From positions 1 through 23,316 of IMG/VR virus record IMGVR_UViG_3300008267_000623: a stretch of 23,316 nt of DNA; one strand, given 5' to 3'. This DNA comes from a virus. Numbering within the stretch: the stretch's first letter is position 1; each line of letters opens with the position of its first letter. Positions 1 through 20,335 of this stretch are shown here, piece after piece. The position numbers were made by a program, and so were the translations under genes. Under the pieces are notes generated by a model that was not told the DNA's origin, searched no databases, and worked only from the letters and a program-made list of their open reading frames with translations.

Positions 1-713
1 CGATTTGAGAAACGATCCATGCGTGGTACAATCTTCAATACGTCAGTGACATAGTCAAGAATTTTGACAGATTTTGTCTCATTCTTCACTGTAAACGTAC
101 CACGTTTGATCATAGAATTGATACCACCACCATTAGCACTTTTACCGCTAAGAATAGCAGCGATCGTTTGCACTTCAAAATCATATTGATTAAAGTAGTG
201 CGTCAACTTTTTGTAATCAGGACGAATAAATGACCACACTTGAACGTAGTCTTTTAACTGCCATGATTTAGAAGTGGAATTGAGCAGTGCTGTATACTCA
301 ACCAGTTCTTCTGAACTTGTAATTTCAATCTTTACGTAAGGAATATCAGAATTCTCACGCATCAGAGCAAAATACAAATGCTGTCCATCGATAATGTAAG
401 TGCCATTTAATCCGTTAAAATACAGATCAGCAACTACAATAGGACGAACAATACCCATCTTACCTACAGATTCAGCAAGTTTTGTTACTTGGGCTGGAAT
501 AATCGCACGATTAATACCCTCCATAAACTTGAAACCTGTTTTAGATCCTTTCTCAAGAATTTTCACATCAAAAAGACTTGACAATGTTTTCTTGAACGTT
601 TTACGAGTTTTTTTCTGAGATTGCTCAGCGGTGATACGCATAACACCGTTTTCAATTACCAACGCTTTTCTGCTTGTTGTTTTTTTAGCAGATTTTTTGA
701 TGTTCTTTTTCAT
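1..713 (-). CDS. ParB-like nuclease-domain protein (partial, C-terminus beyond window)
   Basis: The frame is open from an ATG at 713 to the left edge, giving 237 residues without a stop. After a Lys-rich N-terminus (about residues 1-17), residues 60-125 resemble the N-terminal ParB/sulfiredoxin-like domain: a segment 'GIVRPIVVA' (about 87-95), then 'YIIDGQH' (106-112) followed by a helix 'LYFALMREN'. This matches the 'qRpivV..dG.yylIdGqHR..A' pattern of ParB-domain phage proteins, with Leu in place of the usual Arg after GQH. In this superfamily the domain binds or cleaves nucleic acid or uses CTP; phage members are mostly uncharacterised regulators. The start fits the leader motif shared by the leftward genes (CCTTAAAT 11 nt upstream). 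It is the most leftward gene, with the tRNA upstream. Domain call fairly firm; role (partition, regulation or nuclease) unknown. Confidence 0.75.
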   Translation of the reverse strand, partial: MKKNIKKSAKKTTSRKALVIENGVMRITAEQSQKKTRKTFKKTLSSLFDVKILEKGSKTGFKFMEGINRAIIPAQVTKLAESVGKMGIVRPIVVADLYFNGLNGTYIIDGQHLYFALMRENSDIPYVKIEITSSEELVEYTALLNSTSKSWQLKDYVQVWSFIRPDYKKLTHYFNQYDFEVQTIAAILSGKSANGGGINSMIKRGTFTVKNETKSVKILDYVTDVLKIVPRMDRFSN

Positions 714-754
714 TTAACAATGAAATTTAAGGGGTGAATGAATATGTGAATTCG

Positions 755-828
755 TGATCCTGATTGGGGTCGAACCAATAACCTACAGCTTAGAAGGCTG
801 TTGCTCTATCCAATTGAGCTACAAGATC
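755..828 (-). tRNA. tRNA-Arg (anticodon TCT)
   Basis: Read on the minus strand the sequence folds as a complete cloverleaf: 7-bp acceptor stem GATCTTG/CAGGATC with one G-U pair, D stem GCTC/GAGC with a 9-nt loop containing GG, anticodon stem ACAGC/GCTGT with loop CTTCTAA (anticodon TCT, reading AGA), 5-nt variable loop and T arm ATTGG-TTCGACC-CCAAT. The discriminator is A; CCA is not encoded. AGA is a frequent Arg codon in the rightward structural genes, so the tRNA probably supplements the host pool. It lies between the ParB-like gene and a group of small membrane-protein genes, all on the same strand. Confidence 0.95.
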
Positions 829-3137: not shown

Positions 3138-3229
3138 TACCAATTTACCAATTGACACGCGGACACGTGAGGAGATCGTCTACCTGTCCGTACATTGTCC
3201 GTATAAACTCGCAGATTGGTGAATTGGTA
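3138..3229. repeat. 15-bp inverted repeat built from ACCAAT units, with internal repeats
   Basis: TACCAATTTACCAAT (3138-3152) and ATTGGTGAATTGGTA (3215-3229) are inverted repeats, 14 of 15 positions matching and one G-U. Each arm contains two copies of ACCAAT/ATTGGT. Inside lie CGGACA (3160-3165), which can pair with either of two tandem TGTCCGTA copies (3185-3192 and 3196-3203). The symmetry and repeated half-sites suit a binding site for a dimeric protein (operator, centromere-like or origin element) or a folded RNA. No gene occupies the stretch. Confidence 0.5.
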
Positions 3230-3269
3230 AAGAAAATATCCCGCTACCCCGAGATGAGGTAGCGAGATA
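3229..3269 (-). terminator. Intrinsic terminator of the 180-residue gene
   Basis: On the minus strand, TATCTCGCTACC (3269-3258) pairs with GGTAGCGGGATA (3248-3237) over 12 bp, with one T-G pair, around a 9-nt loop, and is followed by TTTTCTTT. It starts 13 nt past the stop of 3282-3824. Confidence 0.85.
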
Positions 3270-3281
3270 TTAGTGTGTGGA

Positions 3282-3824
3282 TTACTCGAATCCGAGTTCT
3301 ACGTCAGCAGGTTGTTCTGCTTCTGCTTGTTCTAACTGATTTTCAGTTGGAACTGCAATAGATGCGTCAGCAGTAGCTGTACGAGATGCGAGTCGTGCGA
3401 AGAGTGCTTGTTTCTTCGCAATGAAGAGTTCGCGTTCCTTCTCCATTTTGAGTTTCGCATTGGTAGCAGAAGTGATTTCTCTGCTTTCGTGCTTGTAAAC
3501 TTCGGAGAATTCGAGAGAATGATTGATGCTGTTGAAGAGCACCAAGCGACCTTTACCATCGAGACTCATTTGTACGCGTTCGTCGCCACTCTTGATGCTA
3601 CCATCGCGAGTGTCTACGTAGTCCTTGGTTGTCAGAGTGCAACCGACTAAACGTGTGAGTTCACTCGCAGAAGTGTCTACGCCTTTTCTACGTAGAGAGT
3701 TGTGCGTGATACCGATTTCGATGTTCTGACCTTCGCAACTTGCACTAAACATTGCATAAGGGGTGGCGTTTGCACCGAAGAGCTGTTCTGGATTAGTCAG
3801 CTCGAGAATGAGAATTTTCTTCAT
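3282..3824 (-). CDS. Unknown 180-residue protein with acidic C-terminal tail
   Basis: Residues 1-115 look like a compact, beta-rich globular domain (alternating hydrophobic segments, e.g. IEIGITHN, GCTLTTKDYV, GRLVLFN). Residues 115-150 are a charged helix (KLKMEKERELFIAKKQALFARL), and the last 25 residues are acidic and Gln-rich, ending ELGFE. A globular domain plus flexible acidic tail with a terminal aromatic resembles single-stranded DNA-binding proteins in outline, but no OB-fold signature was recognised, so this is speculation. Codon use is more GC-rich (CGT, GCG, CTG) than neighbouring genes, which suggests high expression. Monocistronic: its own terminator, CTTTAAAT 10 nt before ATG, and a conserved hairpin element about 100 nt upstream. 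Confidence 0.7.
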   Translation of the reverse strand: MKKILILELTNPEQLFGANATPYAMFSASCEGQNIEIGITHNSLRRKGVDTSASELTRLVGCTLTTKDYVDTRDGSIKSGDERVQMSLDGKGRLVLFNSINHSLEFSEVYKHESREITSATNAKLKMEKERELFIAKKQALFARLASRTATADASIAVPTENQLEQAEAEQPADVELGFE

Positions 3825-3922
3825 TTGAAGGAAAATTTAAAGATTAAAAAATAAAAATACCAATTAACAAACGTATATATTCTGTCTTCACGCTATGGTA
3901 AACAATTAAGATGCAAAATATT

Positions 3923-3950
3923 AAAGGTGTTCCACGTAGTGGGATGAAAT
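3923..3950 (-). promoter_or_regulatory. Conserved leader element, copy 1 (covarying hairpin)
   Basis: On the plus strand the element reads AAAGGTGTT, then CCAC-GTA-GTGG, then GATGAAAT. A second copy at 4362-4389 has identical flanks and loop, but its stem reads GTGC-GTA-GCAC. Pairing is kept although three of four base pairs changed. It lies between the terminator of the upstream gene and the start of 3282-3824. The strand is assigned from the flanking leftward genes. Confidence 0.65.
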
Positions 3951-3960
3951 TATTTGGGTG

Positions 3961-3988
3961 TAAAAGAAGGGGATGTAATTCCCCTTCT
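3961..3988 (-). terminator. Intrinsic terminator of the 98-residue gene
   Basis: AGAAGGGGA (3965-3973) and TCCCCTTCT (3980-3988) form a 9-bp perfect hairpin with a 6-nt loop, followed on the minus strand by TTTTA. It begins 7 nt past the stop of 3996-4292. Confidence 0.85.
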
Positions 3989-3995
3989 GAAGCGG

Positions 3996-4292
3996 TTAAT
4001 ACGAATATTTCCGCTCAATGCGCTTAATAGCGACTTTTTTCAAAAACTCATTCAGCACGCGAACGTAATTACCCCACTTTTCAGCATCTGCTGTAATAAA
4101 GCGGAATAATAGCATAACGTCGCTACTGTTAGAGTTCTTTACTGCAGATCTCTGAACAAGCATTCCTGGTAATTCAGGATAGTAGTCATCGTTAGTACAT
4201 CTTGCACGCAACTTAATGCTGTACAAATTGAATGTCTTGTCGATACAAATGCGCTTGTACCCAAATGGAAGCTGAATGTCTCGAGGATCCAT
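3996..4292 (-). CDS. Unknown 98-residue protein
   Basis: 98 residues, basic at the C-terminus (KKVAIKRIERKYSY) with no membrane segment or signal peptide. It begins MDPRDIQLPFGYKRI; the middle (MLLFRFITADAEKWGNYVRVLNEFLKKV) suggests a strand followed by a long helix. No motif allows a function to be named. Expressed on its own: terminator directly downstream, CCTTAATC about 12 nt before the ATG, and copy 2 of the conserved hairpin element in its leader. Confidence 0.65.
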   Translation of the reverse strand: MDPRDIQLPFGYKRICIDKTFNLYSIKLRARCTNDDYYPELPGMLVQRSAVKNSNSSDVMLLFRFITADAEKWGNYVRVLNEFLKKVAIKRIERKYSY

Positions 4293-4361
4293 AAAACTGT
4301 TTTAGATTAAGGAATAAATAACCAATTCATAGAAGTATAAGAATCAACCTCTTACAATTAT

Positions 4362-4389
4362 AAAGGTGTTGTGCGTAGCACGATGAAAT
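4362..4389 (-). promoter_or_regulatory. Conserved leader element, copy 2 (covarying hairpin)
   Basis: Plus-strand AAAGGTGTT, stem GTGC-GTA-GCAC, then GATGAAAT; all 20 unpaired positions equal those of the copy at 3923-3950, while the 4-bp stem differs with compensating changes. It lies about 70 nt upstream of the 98-residue gene, just after the preceding gene's terminator. Downstream both leaders also share TATACNTNTNTNAATTGGT, a possible promoter -10 region. Confidence 0.65.
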
Positions 4390-4399
4390 ATAAACTACG

Positions 4400-4434
4400 A
4401 AAAAGAACCCCTACGACTTTCGTTTTCGGGGTTC
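4400..4434 (-). terminator. Intrinsic terminator of the 65-residue gene
   Basis: GAACCCC (4405-4411) pairs with GGGGTTC (4428-4434). On the minus strand the hairpin is followed by TTTTT (4404-4400). It begins 6 nt past the stop of 4440-4637. Confidence 0.85.
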
Positions 4435-4439
4435 CTAAC

Positions 4440-4637
4440 CTAACTCATCTCATACACTTCCATATGCTGGATACCACGTGCAGACCATTCATTTCTGAAC
4501 TCTAACTGCTCGCGTAGTGTTTCTATCGCTTTCACTTCGTCTACAGCATCCACTTCATAAGTGTCTGTGTCTACATCGATGTTACCTGTTTTAAAGTTAA
4601 CATCTACCAGTTCAGCGATAATAAAGAATGTGATCAT
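4440..4637 (-). CDS. Small acidic protein of 65 residues, unknown function
   Basis: 65 residues: a beta-like N-terminus (MITFFIIAELVDV), an acidic middle (DVDTDTYEVDAVDEVKAIETLREQL) and a C-terminal helix. The 'Y.V.A.de.eAie.L' pattern is typical of small phage proteins with one strand-helix repeat, but no named family was recognised. Monocistronic: terminator downstream and an unusual leader upstream in which an 11-bp hairpin followed by a T-rich stretch ends only about 11 nt before the ATG, so expression may be controlled by attenuation. Confidence 0.6.
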   Translation of the reverse strand: MITFFIIAELVDVNFKTGNIDVDTDTYEVDAVDEVKAIETLREQLEFRNEWSARGIQHMEVYEMS

Positions 4638-4683
4638 ACAAAAGAAAATTTAGGAGGTTAAGAAATAATATCAACCTCCTAAA
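4638..4683 (-). promoter_or_regulatory. Attenuator-like hairpin at the start of the 65-residue gene
   Basis: TTTAGGAGGTT (4649-4659) and AACCTCCTAAA (4673-4683) form an 11-bp perfect hairpin with a 13-nt loop, followed on the minus strand by TTTTCTTTTG and the ATG. This has the shape of an intrinsic terminator placed directly before a start codon. The downstream arm also carries the CTCCTAAAT version of the leader motif, so folding would hide it. The minus-strand arm contains AGGAGG, but too far from the ATG to act as a normal ribosome-binding site. Confidence 0.5.
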
Positions 4684-4697
4684 CGTTCATTTCTGAG

Positions 4698-4748
4698 TTA
4701 AGGTTGTCCTTTAGCGGATTGTTTTTTCATCAAGACTATTAACAGCAT
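4698..4748 (-). CDS. Possible 16-residue leader peptide
   Basis: ATG at 4748 to TAA at 4698 encodes 16 residues (MLLIVLMKKQSAKGQP), with CTCCTTAAAT 15 nt upstream. The start lies in the loop of a perfect 7-bp hairpin CAAGACT/AGTCTTG (4731-4756), and the attenuator-like hairpin of the next gene follows 15 nt past the stop. The order short peptide, hairpin, terminator-like hairpin, gene recalls translation-coupled attenuation. It could equally be a chance frame. Confidence 0.25.
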   Translation of the reverse strand: MLLIVLMKKQSAKGQP

Positions 4749-4895
4749 GAGTCTTGTCTAACCATTTAAGGAGTGATATCAACTCTCCTAAGATTAGAAT
4801 TAAAATAAATAAATGGGATTAACTATCCCAACCTTATAATAGTACTACGCCCTATATAATAGAAAGAACATTCTGTACCAGTAGGAAATAAAATA

Positions 4896-4976
4896 TCAAT
4901 CATTCTCTACAACTACTTCTAAATCAATGTCTTGCACAGCATGCTTGTTGCAGATTGAGTGTAGCACAGCATCCAT
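4896..4976 (-). CDS. Very small possible gene (26 residues)
   Basis: ATG at 4976 to TGA at 4896 gives 26 residues ending in an acidic stretch (QDIDLEVVVEND). Composition is protein-like, but there is no leader motif and an overlapping frame is also open. The AT-rich bases between it and about 4793 hold no gene, only a GGGAT/ATCCC hairpin near 4823-4837. Confidence 0.2.
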   Translation of the reverse strand: MDAVLHSICNKHAVQDIDLEVVVEND

Positions 4977-5143
4977 CTGTAGAAATACCACATTTCCCTA
5001 CAAAAATGTCTACCCACTCTTTTTTTCTGCAGAAAAATCATCACCTCTCCTCAACTACTGGGGGTACCGCGCTTCAGTTTTGAGCTAGGGGTTGCTTGAT
5101 ATAGTAGTCATCACACCCTACTCTATAAACAATTTTCATCACC

Positions 5144-5202
5144 GTTGTTAAAGTTGTCAAGGTTGTTAAGTCTGTGGGGGGGGTTAATTTAGGGTTGACA
5201 AC
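5144..5202. repeat. Iteron-like tandem 9-mers with an inverted copy
   Basis: Three head-to-tail 9-mers GTTGTTAAA, GTTGTCAAG, GTTGTTAAG (5144-5170) are followed by TTGACAAC (5195-5202), the reverse complement of the core of the middle copy. A run of eight Gs (5176-5183) lies between. They occupy the divergent intergenic region between leftward and rightward genes, where replication origins and master operators often lie in phages. Site type is inferred from layout only. Confidence 0.5.
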
Positions 5203-5244
5203 ATGGGGGAGGTCTCACTTACACAATAGATTTTTTTCATTCAG

Positions 5245-5275
5245 TTTGAAAATTTCCTAGTTTTGTTGTATATTG
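5245..5275 (+). promoter_or_regulatory. Rightward promoter candidate
   Basis: TTTG (5245-5248), a 20-nt spacer and TATATTG (5269-5275) resemble the Bacteroidota housekeeping promoter (TTTG about -33, TAnnTTTG about -7), with one T missing in the downstream box. The same bases also read as TTGAAA-17 nt-TATATT. Transcription would begin near 5282, exactly where the hairpin-rich stretch begins. Confidence 0.45.
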
Positions 5276-5281
5276 ATTATG

Positions 5282-5575
5282 TATCCGCTTAACCAGCGAT
5301 CCTGTTCGATGGACCAAAGGTGGTTAGATAGAACGGTAGAAGTCGGGTTGTGGGAGTAGCGCGTAGACGTGAAACTGGTTTTCTCCGATAGGTACACAAA
5401 TGGTAGATTTTTGACATTCTAGGGGTGGAACATTACACTGCGGGTTAAGTGTCCTGAATTAACAGGAATGCGAAGTTTCATGTGGGGGTAGGAGAGCCCA
5501 TCTCTCTGACGTACAGCCTAGAATAGTCGGTCTATTAAATTACAGTGAAAAGGAAACATGCATTTCCCCACGGGG
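5282..5575 (+). ncRNA. Candidate structured RNA or long leader in the divergent region
   Basis: About 290 nt without a gene. ATTCTAGG (5416-5423) pairs with CCTAGAAT (5517-5524) as an 8-bp closing stem around CACT/AGTG (5436-5451), TCCTG/CAGGA (5452-5467) and GGAGAG/CTCTCT with G-U (5491-5507). Upstream, TAACCA/TGGTTA (5290-5326) has in its loop GTTC (5304-5307), which could pair with GAAC (5331-5334) as a pseudoknot. GC content is well above the flanks, as for stable RNAs in AT-rich genomes. It follows a promoter candidate. It may be an independent RNA or the 5' leader of the rightward genes; no clear terminator was seen before 5686. Confidence 0.4.
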
Positions 5576-5608
5576 ATTCTATTGTTCAGATATTGTGTAT
5601 AACATATA

Positions 5609-5639
5609 TTGGTTTGCTAATCATCCTTAATTAAATTTG
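5609..5639 (+). promoter_or_regulatory. Second rightward promoter candidate before the late genes
   Basis: TAAATTTG (5632-5639) matches the Bacteroidota TAnnTTTG box exactly. TTG (5609-5611) lies 20 nt upstream, although the stronger TTTG (5613-5616) is 15 nt away, a short spacing. The start point would be near 5646, some 40 nt before the first rightward gene. Confidence 0.35.
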
Positions 5640-5685
5640 GTAAGTTTAAATATTTAAGGTATATTAGTAGTGTAAACCAATCTAT

Positions 5686-5976
5686 ATGATGCACAATTGT
5701 AATGTCCATTGTCATGCCCACACCTCTCAAGACACTGAACTATTAGGTATTGAGGATCCAGGTAAGTGGTTGCCTTTTTGTTTTCTATTAGATGTTGTTG
5801 TTGCTATTAAGCAGAGTACGGACGACGAAGAAGAAGGAACGTACAATTGCACCACCGTCTTTACAGACCATGGTGATAGTTACATTATAGACACTCCCTT
5901 TTATACTTTCCAAGAAATCTGGACATCATATCTGACTCCCTCCCAAGAAGAGGATGAGAAGGATATTCATTTATAA
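5686..5976 (+). CDS. Unknown 96-residue acidic protein, first rightward gene
   Basis: 96 residues. The N-terminus is His/Cys-rich (MMHNCNVHCHAHTS), the middle has two hydrophobic strands (FCFLLDVVVAIKQ) and the C-terminal part reads TTVFTDHGDSYIIDTPFYTFQEIW, a pattern of short beta strands ending in an aromatic loop, before an acidic tail (SQEEDEKDIHL). 'T.v.t..G..y.i.tp...' patterns occur in small Bacteroidota phage and host proteins of unknown role. The start is either of two adjacent ATGs. It lies 17 nt before the next gene and probably opens the rightward operon. Confidence 0.6.
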   Translation: MMHNCNVHCHAHTSQDTELLGIEDPGKWLPFCFLLDVVVAIKQSTDDEEEGTYNCTTVFTDHGDSYIIDTPFYTFQEIWTSYLTPSQEEDEKDIHL

Positions 5977-17548: not shown

Positions 17549-17569
17549 GAATTTGTAAATTTGCAAAAT

Positions 17570-17854
17570 ATGAAAACAATTCAACCAGTAAATGTTTGGG
17601 TAAATGGTCAGCAACAGACAGCTAATCAATTTAGCTTACGCATCATTGCAGATGATTTAGCAACCTCTGCTACATTTTATTATGAGCTTGTGAATCAGAC
17701 AGTTCCTGCTGAAGGAGATCCTGTCAACACTGTTCTAGCTAATGGTAATTCTTCTCTTTCTGGAGCAGAATATGATGCTTGGGATGAAAGTGGTGATGTA
17801 AACAATGAAGCTTATGTATTAATGGCAGCTAAACTCAACCTTACACTTATTTAA
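17570..17854 (+). CDS. Small virion-module protein, paralogue A (94 residues)
   Basis: 94 residues from ATG at 17570 (an in-frame TTG at 17561 is less likely because the paralogue at 20033 begins with the same MKTIQPV). Blocks 'VNVWVNGQQQTANQFSLRI', 'DDLATSATFYYEL', 'NTVLANGNSSLSGAEYDAWDE' and 'AYVLMAAKLNLTL' are shared with 20033-20335 almost residue for residue. The family looks like a small beta-rich structural protein common in Bacteroidota phages, placed after fibre genes. A role as fibre-attachment or decoration subunit is inference. The leader is AT-rich with no Shine-Dalgarno sequence. Confidence 0.65.
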   Translation: MKTIQPVNVWVNGQQQTANQFSLRIIADDLATSATFYYELVNQTVPAEGDPVNTVLANGNSSLSGAEYDAWDESGDVNNEAYVLMAAKLNLTLI

Positions 17855-20032: not shown

Positions 20033-20335
20033 ATGAAAACAATTCAACCCGTAACACTTTGGGTAAACGGACAACAGCAAACTGCAAATCAATTTAATTT
20101 GCGCATTGTTAATGATGATCTTGCATCATCAGCTACGTTCTATTTTGAACTTATCAATCAAGTGACCACTCCTGGTGAAAACCCTGATTCTGAGCCTCAG
20201 ATCACTAACACAGTTCTTGCTAATGGTAACTCTTCACTTCAGGGTGCTGAGTATGACAGCTGGGGAGATAGTGGAAACATCAATGATGATGCTTACACAT
20301 TGATTGCAGCTAAGTTAAATCTTACCCTAGTTTAA
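20033..20335 (+). CDS. Small virion-module protein, paralogue B (100 residues)
   Basis: 100 residues, a paralogue of 17570-17854: both start MKTIQPV, share 'WVNGQQQTANQF', 'TNTVLANGNSSL' or its near copy, 'GAEYD.W' and end 'AAKLNLTL'. The B copy carries a 6-residue insertion (about 47-52, ENPDSEPQ region). Leader is AT-rich with TTTTTAAAT about 11 nt before the ATG. It closes fibre module 2 as paralogue A closes module 1, supporting a structural role tied to fibres. A CCTAG/CTAGG hairpin overlaps its stop. Confidence 0.65.
   Translation: MKTIQPVTLWVNGQQQTANQFNLRIVNDDLASSATFYFELINQVTTPGENPDSEPQITNTVLANGNSSLQGAEYDSWGDSGNINDDAYTLIAAKLNLTLV

What the first reader, a model, noticed from the sequence alone, without database searches (positions are those of the whole stretch)
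3923..4389. Duplicated 28-nt leader element with compensatory stem changes
Two copies (3923-3950 and 4362-4389) are identical at all 20 unpaired positions (AAAGGTGTT, GTA loop, GATGAAAT), while the 4-bp stem changes from CCAC/GTGG to GTGC/GCAC. Three of four pairs changed with pairing preserved. This is direct covariation evidence within one window, and both copies precede leftward genes at similar places. It may be a small regulatory RNA motif or a protein-binding hairpin.
Basis: seen in the sequence. Interest (0 to 1): 0.8.

Follow-up and report, generated by a model that had tools for sequence, protein, structure and literature searches.

The report
Mini-hairpins before crAss-like phage early genes
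A freshwater-type crAss-like phage and its relatives carry a tiny hairpin, whose stem letters change freely but always in matching pairs, in front of two or three early genes; it looks like a DNA-hairpin start signal similar to that of phage N4, which would bear on the open question of how crAss-like phages begin transcription.

Summary
The window is a crAss-like phage fragment. Eight distinct copies occur in four lineages (window 2, IMGVR_3300015613_000334 2, a 127-kb phage 1, a 125-kb phage 3). All 35 stem pairs are Watson-Crick. In the seven 4-bp copies there are ten two-sided changes, no one-sided change and no G·U (0/500 shuffles reach this). Fifty-five unrelated places with the same flanks and a GNA triplet form no complete stem. 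The loop is always 5'-GNA-3' on the template strand of the following early gene, closed by C-G in 7 of 8: the known extra-stable DNA mini-hairpin and the loop class of phage N4 virion-RNA-polymerase promoters. Each copy lies 69-106 nt before an early gene, after the preceding gene's terminator-like repeat. The 125-127-kb relatives encode the crAss virion RNA polymerase. My preferred reading is a template-strand DNA-hairpin early promoter that works like N4's but is not a member: the N4 contact bases (-11 purine, -8G, +1C) are absent and the polymerase family differs. The main rival is a hairpin in the mRNA leader. Sequence alone does not settle this; transcription start mapping would.

The parts
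3923..3950 (-). Hairpin element of gene A: flank 3923-3931, stem 3932-3935/3939-3942, GNA (GTA) loop 3936-3938 on the + (template) strand, flank 3943-3950
4362..4389 (-). Hairpin element of gene B: flank 4362-4370, stem 4371-4374/4378-4381, GNA (GTA) loop 4375-4377 on the + (template) strand, flank 4382-4389
3913..3927 (-). Box1-like 3' extension of the gene A element (mRNA sense CCTTTAATATTTTGC)
   Evidence: box1 is repeated 9 times in early leaders of the relative G002
4352..4366 (-). Box1-like 3' extension of the gene B element (mRNA sense CCTTTATAATTGTAA)
3842..3853 (-). Gene-proximal box2 TATTTTTTAATC, putative ordinary early promoter core of gene A
4305..4316 (-). Gene-proximal box2 TATTCCTTAATC, putative ordinary early promoter core of gene B
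3282..3824 (-). Early gene A (180 aa); family found only in the four lineages that carry the element; weak OB-fold/SSB-like model
3996..4292 (-). Early gene B (98 aa), beta4-alpha model without a clear structural relative
3965..3988 (-). Terminator-like inverted repeat (8-bp stem, 8-nt loop, then T's) after gene B, directly upstream of the gene A element
   Evidence: read from sequence; not flagged by the strict terminator scan
4405..4434 (-). Terminator-like inverted repeat (7-bp stem, then TTTTT) after gene 4440-4637, directly upstream of the gene B element
   Evidence: read from sequence; loop too long for the strict scan

Best explanation
The element is a distal early promoter, or the core of one, that is read as a DNA mini-hairpin. 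Under negative supercoiling the inverted repeat extrudes. The template strand forms a 4-8 bp stem capped by an extra-stable GNA triloop. The phage's virion RNA polymerase, or an early transcription factor acting with it, recognises the structure together with the flanking single-stranded sequence and starts transcription toward the early gene at or just after RACACCTTTA. SHOWN: the paired stem, the GNA loop on the template strand, the conserved flanks, the position, and restriction to early genes A, B and C. INFERRED: extrusion, recognition by the virion RNA polymerase, and the start site.
For: Stem structure rather than sequence is conserved: 28/28 cells paired, 10 two-sided changes, 0 one-sided, shuffles 0/500; mean pairwise divergence 0.59 in stems versus 0.12 in flanks. 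The loop is GNA in 8/8 copies on the template strand and the closing pair is C-G in 7/8. The literature names 5'-GNA-3' loops as extraordinarily stable DNA mini-hairpins (PMC4686876), and a 5'G...3'A loop closed by C:G on the template strand as the requirement for extrusion of N4 promoters (PMC4496689). N4-like phages have three early hairpin promoters with 4-5 bp stems and 3-nt loops (PMC3715699), which is the same size and number. No G-U pair occurs. The elements sit after the preceding gene's terminator-like repeat and 69-106 nt before early genes. Crassvirales virion RNA polymerase transcribes early genes in a rifampicin-resistant way (PMC10136315), and its homolog is encoded in relatives G001 and G002. 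In G002 the same box1 that follows the hairpins by 4 nt recurs in early leaders only.
Against: No transcription start is mapped. Stem length varies (4 to 7 bp) while both flanks are fixed, so the loop-to-flank distance is not constant as it is in N4. The N4 contact bases (purine at -11, -8G, +1C) are absent. phi14:2 and crAss001, which have the polymerase, show no such repeated hairpin, nor does L010, whose portal is 83% identical. Most early genes, hairpin or not, also have a gene-proximal box2 that could be their promoter. ViennaRNA DNA energies do not favour one strand.
Confidence: 0.42

Rival explanations
1. RNA leader operator: the hairpin is in the 5' untranslated RNA of genes A, B and C and is bound with its flanks by a phage or host protein, perhaps the product of gene A, to control translation or stability, in the manner of T4 gp32 autoregulation.
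For: The stem covaries and lies in the leader at a similar distance from the start codon. Gene A has a weak single-stranded-DNA-binding OB-fold resemblance, and gene A is the one gene that carries the element in all four lineages. As RNA the mRNA strand folds the same stem.
Against: No G-U pair is seen in any stem. The mRNA-strand loop would be UNC, not a known stable RNA triloop. Only 17-26 nt separate the upstream terminator-like repeat from the stem, leaving little room for a separate promoter upstream. The gene-proximal box2 would give an RNA without the hairpin. Structure E-values for gene A are 0.02 or worse in the PDB library.
Confidence: 0.3
2. Topology switch: the hairpin is the spacer of a host-type two-box promoter (upstream ATTYCA, downstream TATAATnTTG), and its extrusion under supercoiling turns the promoter off or on.
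For: Conserved boxes lie on both sides. An N4 hairpin placed between -35 and -10 made an E. coli promoter gyrase-dependent (PMC4496689).
Against: The box match to Bacteroidetes promoters is loose and from memory. One copy has a spacer 6 bp longer.
Confidence: 0.1
3. 5'-terminal RNA hairpin that only protects the early mRNA from decay.
For: The upstream flank TATATTYCA resembles the box2 promoter core, so RNA could begin at the stem.
Against: Does not explain the fixed GNA loop or the conserved RACACCTTTA flank.
Confidence: 0.08
4. Replication or priming signal on single-stranded DNA that happens to lie between early genes.
For: GNA mini-hairpins occur at some single-strand origins (from memory). 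Gene A may be an SSB.
Against: Copies precede genes A, B and C in fixed orientation and similar spacing, which a replication signal does not need.
Confidence: 0.05

Closest known systems
Coliphage N4 and N4-like (Schitoviridae) virion RNA polymerase hairpin promoters
   Same: Template-strand mini-hairpin with a 3-nt 5'-GNA-3' loop closed by C-G, 4-7 bp variable stem, a few copies, before early genes of a short-tailed phage with a virion-packaged RNA polymerase
   Different: N4 needs a purine at the loop centre, -8G and +1C; here the centre is T, C or A, -8 varies and the template base at the +1 distance is G. Long fixed flanks on both sides and variable loop-to-flank distance. The polymerase is the two-barrel crAss type, not the T7-like N4 type.
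T4 gene 32 autoregulatory leader (from memory)
   Same: Structured element in the leader of a possible single-stranded-DNA-binding protein gene, followed by AT-rich sequence up to the start codon
   Different: T4 uses a pseudoknot at one gene; a 3-nt loop cannot form one, and here the element is repeated at two or three genes
P23-45 virion RNA polymerase promoters (PMC10770324)
   Same: Early promoters of a phage two-barrel virion RNA polymerase in a small early region
   Different: A linear AT-rich motif; no hairpin mentioned in the passages read

Membership tests
N4-type vRNAP hairpin promoter | Template-strand hairpin with 3-nt loop and short stem (4-7 bp) | tested here: met
   8/8 copies; stems 4-7 bp, up to 8 with flanking pairs
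N4-type vRNAP hairpin promoter | Loop 5'-G..A-3' closed by 5'C:G3' on the template strand | tested here: met
   GNA 8/8, C-G closing 7/8, one T-A
N4-type vRNAP hairpin promoter | Purine at loop centre (-11) | tested here: not met
   T in four, C in two, A in two copies
N4-type vRNAP hairpin promoter | -8G in the stem and +1C on the template | tested here: not met
   the base next to the closing pair is A, G or C; the template base at the equivalent +1 distance is G
N4-type vRNAP hairpin promoter | Few copies before early genes | tested here: met
   1-3 copies per phage; whole records of G001 and G002 searched
N4-type vRNAP hairpin promoter | Served by a virion RNA polymerase | tested here: inconclusive
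   crAss-type vRNAP homolog encoded in G001 and G002, not in this partial window; service of this site not shown
N4-type vRNAP hairpin promoter | Hairpin extrudes and transcription starts 11 nt from the loop centre | not testable with these tools
   no transcript data
RNA families (Rfam 15) | Match to a covariance model | tested here: not met
   no match to E 5 in 3200-5700
SSB-type translational operator | Downstream gene encodes a single-stranded-DNA-binding protein | tested here: inconclusive
   gene A model OB-like, best PDB hits SSBs at E 0.02, pLDDT 66
SSB-type translational operator | Hairpin lies within the transcript | not testable with these tools
   no transcript data

The most novel reading that the evidence does not exclude
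Some crAss-like phages start early transcription at extruded template-strand DNA hairpins read by their two-barrel virion RNA polymerase: an independent invention of the N4 strategy by an unrelated polymerase, with a different code (fixed flanks, free stem, GNA cap).
Probability: 0.33. Interest if true: 0.85.

Novelty: new variant of a known kind. Interest (0 to 1): 0.62.

Why it matters
How the giant virion RNA polymerase of crAss-like phages finds its promoters is not described in the literature held here (the Crassvirales review uses the word 'promoter' nowhere; the primary phi14:2 paper was not available). A small, structure-defined candidate with natural compensatory changes gives ready-made test templates. 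If true, DNA-hairpin promoters evolved at least twice with unrelated polymerases. If instead it is an RNA operator, it is a new phage leader motif.

Tried and rejected
Coding on the + strand (ATG in GATGAAAT): not conserved, ATTGGAAT has no ATG and GTGAAATAA stops (read). Intrinsic terminator: the terminator-like repeats are separate and adjacent. Rfam: none. Same element in phi14:2 and crAss001: absent. In L010 and other relatives without gene A: absent. Exact reader pattern in viral contigs: 0; relaxed patterns needed. Genome contigs: only unpaired chance hits. Gene A homologs by profile: no new lineage. Gene B fold search: no informative hit. DNA folding energies to choose the strand: uninformative, as both strands fold the same stem with similar energy. 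One short phage search was a wasted query.

Full report
WHAT IS THERE. The two copies are exactly as described: AAAGGTGTT-stem-GTA-stem-GATGAAAT at 3923-3950 and 4362-4389. All 20 unpaired positions are identical, and three of four pairs are changed on both sides. With up to 3 mismatches no other match exists in the window, and none appears in 100 shuffles.

WHAT THE WINDOW IS. Terminase, portal and major head protein match phage families, and the terminase's relatives in named phages are mainly Crassvirales; hundreds of IMG/VR contigs carry a related portal. The gene layout, with a leftward block of small genes and a tRNA-Arg diverging from a rightward packaging/structural block, resembles that of phi14:2 and crAss001, where the block of small genes next to the structural genes is early (PMC8375218). 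Both elements therefore lie in the presumed early region.

RELATIVES. IMGVR_3300015613_000334 (L003) has both copies with the loop changed to GCA in both. A group of near-identical contigs (L006, L089, L090, L095, L113; G001 is 127 kb) has one, CTGC-GTA-GCAG. G002 (IMGVR_3300008120_000016, 124.7 kb) has three: CACC-GTA-GGTG, CCCC-GAA-GGGG and a 7-bp CTCAACT-GAA-AGTTGAG. A search of whole records with variable spacing found no further paired copy in G001 or G002. That makes eight distinct copies in four lineages. All 35 stem pairs are Watson-Crick. In the seven 4-bp copies, 28/28 cells pair, 10 cells change on both sides and none on one side; the covariation score is 0.98 against 0.22 in shuffles (0/500), and sliding the partner destroys it. 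As a natural control, the collections hold 55 other distinct sequences with the same flanks and a GNA triplet in the middle, and none is fully paired. The number of independent evolutionary events is small, so this is strong evidence for a constrained stem but not a formal R-scape test.

ANATOMY. Read in the sense of the following gene, the element is TATTYCAYY, 5' arm, UNC, 3' arm, RACACCTTTA(t)AT. It begins 17-26 nt after a terminator-like inverted repeat of the preceding gene and ends 69-106 nt before the start codon (read). The repeats near window 3965 and 4405 are visible in the sequence but were not flagged by the strict scan. The genes that carry it are A (all four lineages), B (three of four) and, in G002, a third gene. 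In G002 the 15-nt box CCTTTATWAWNTYGG, which follows each hairpin after a 4-nt AACA spacer, also occurs six times without the hairpin in early leaders on the same strand (9 in all at up to 2 mismatches, against 0.2 expected), and a second box TATTYCTTAAYC lies shortly upstream of most early start codons (7 against 0.1). The early genes of G002 therefore seem to have an ordinary two-box promoter, and the hairpin is a second, distal element on a few of them. Between window and L003 the element is 27/28 and 26/28 identical while the rest of the leaders is 81-83% identical.

WHICH STRAND. The loop is GNA on the template strand in all eight copies, and the closing pair is C-G in seven. GNA triloops closed by G-C pairs are the known extraordinarily stable DNA mini-hairpins (PMC4686876), and a loop with 5'G and 3'A closed by C:G on the template strand is what N4 promoters need for extrusion (PMC4496689). 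On the mRNA strand the loop would be UNC, which to my knowledge has no such property, and no stem has a G-U pair. These points favour DNA on the template strand. The ViennaRNA DNA energies do not separate the strands, and the RNA folds too.

MECHANISM. I commit to a DNA-hairpin early promoter, probably for the virion RNA polymerase. Crassvirales polymerase transcribes early genes in rifampicin-resistant fashion (PMC10136315), and homologs are present in G001 and G002. N4-like phages use three hairpin promoters with 4-5 bp stems and 3-nt loops before early genes (PMC3715699). Against membership in the N4 class: the -11 purine, -8G and +1C are missing, the loop-to-flank distance varies, and the polymerase family differs. 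Against generality: phi14:2 and crAss001 show no repeated GNA hairpin. The main rival is an RNA leader element. It gains some weight because gene A resembles OB-fold SSBs, though only at E 0.02 and with pLDDT 66, which recalls T4 gp32 autoregulation.

LIMITS. No transcript data, eight copies, one near-identical group, incomplete window genome, and the primary phi14:2 polymerase paper was not readable here.

Noticed in passing
L145 2135-4965 (+); window 3842, 4305, 4656 (-): Two further early-leader motifs, CCTTTATWAWNTYGG and TATTYCTTAAYC, probably the ordinary early promoter of this phage group; the second also precedes window early genes.
   Followed up: partly
window 3282-3824: Early gene A encodes a small protein found only with the hairpin element, with a weak OB-fold/SSB-like model; two homologs end in APF or EDPF, like SSB tails.
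   Followed up: partly
window 17561-17854 and 20033-20335: Two paralogous small genes (MKTIQPVxxWVNGQQQTANQF...) among structural genes, with a long gene of fibre-like type between them.
   Followed up: no
window 4814-4842 (-) and L003 about 2220 (-): Conserved patch CTATTATAA(G/T)GTTGGGATAGTTAATCCCA upstream of early gene 4440-4637, with its own small inverted repeat.
   Followed up: no
L003 1033-1035 and 1473-1475: Both copies in L003 share the same loop change (GTA to GCA) although their stems stay different, as if the loop centre changed in concert.
   Followed up: no
window 754-828 (-) and 3-713 (-): tRNA-Arg(TCT) and a ParB-like gene at the left end of the early block.
   Followed up: no
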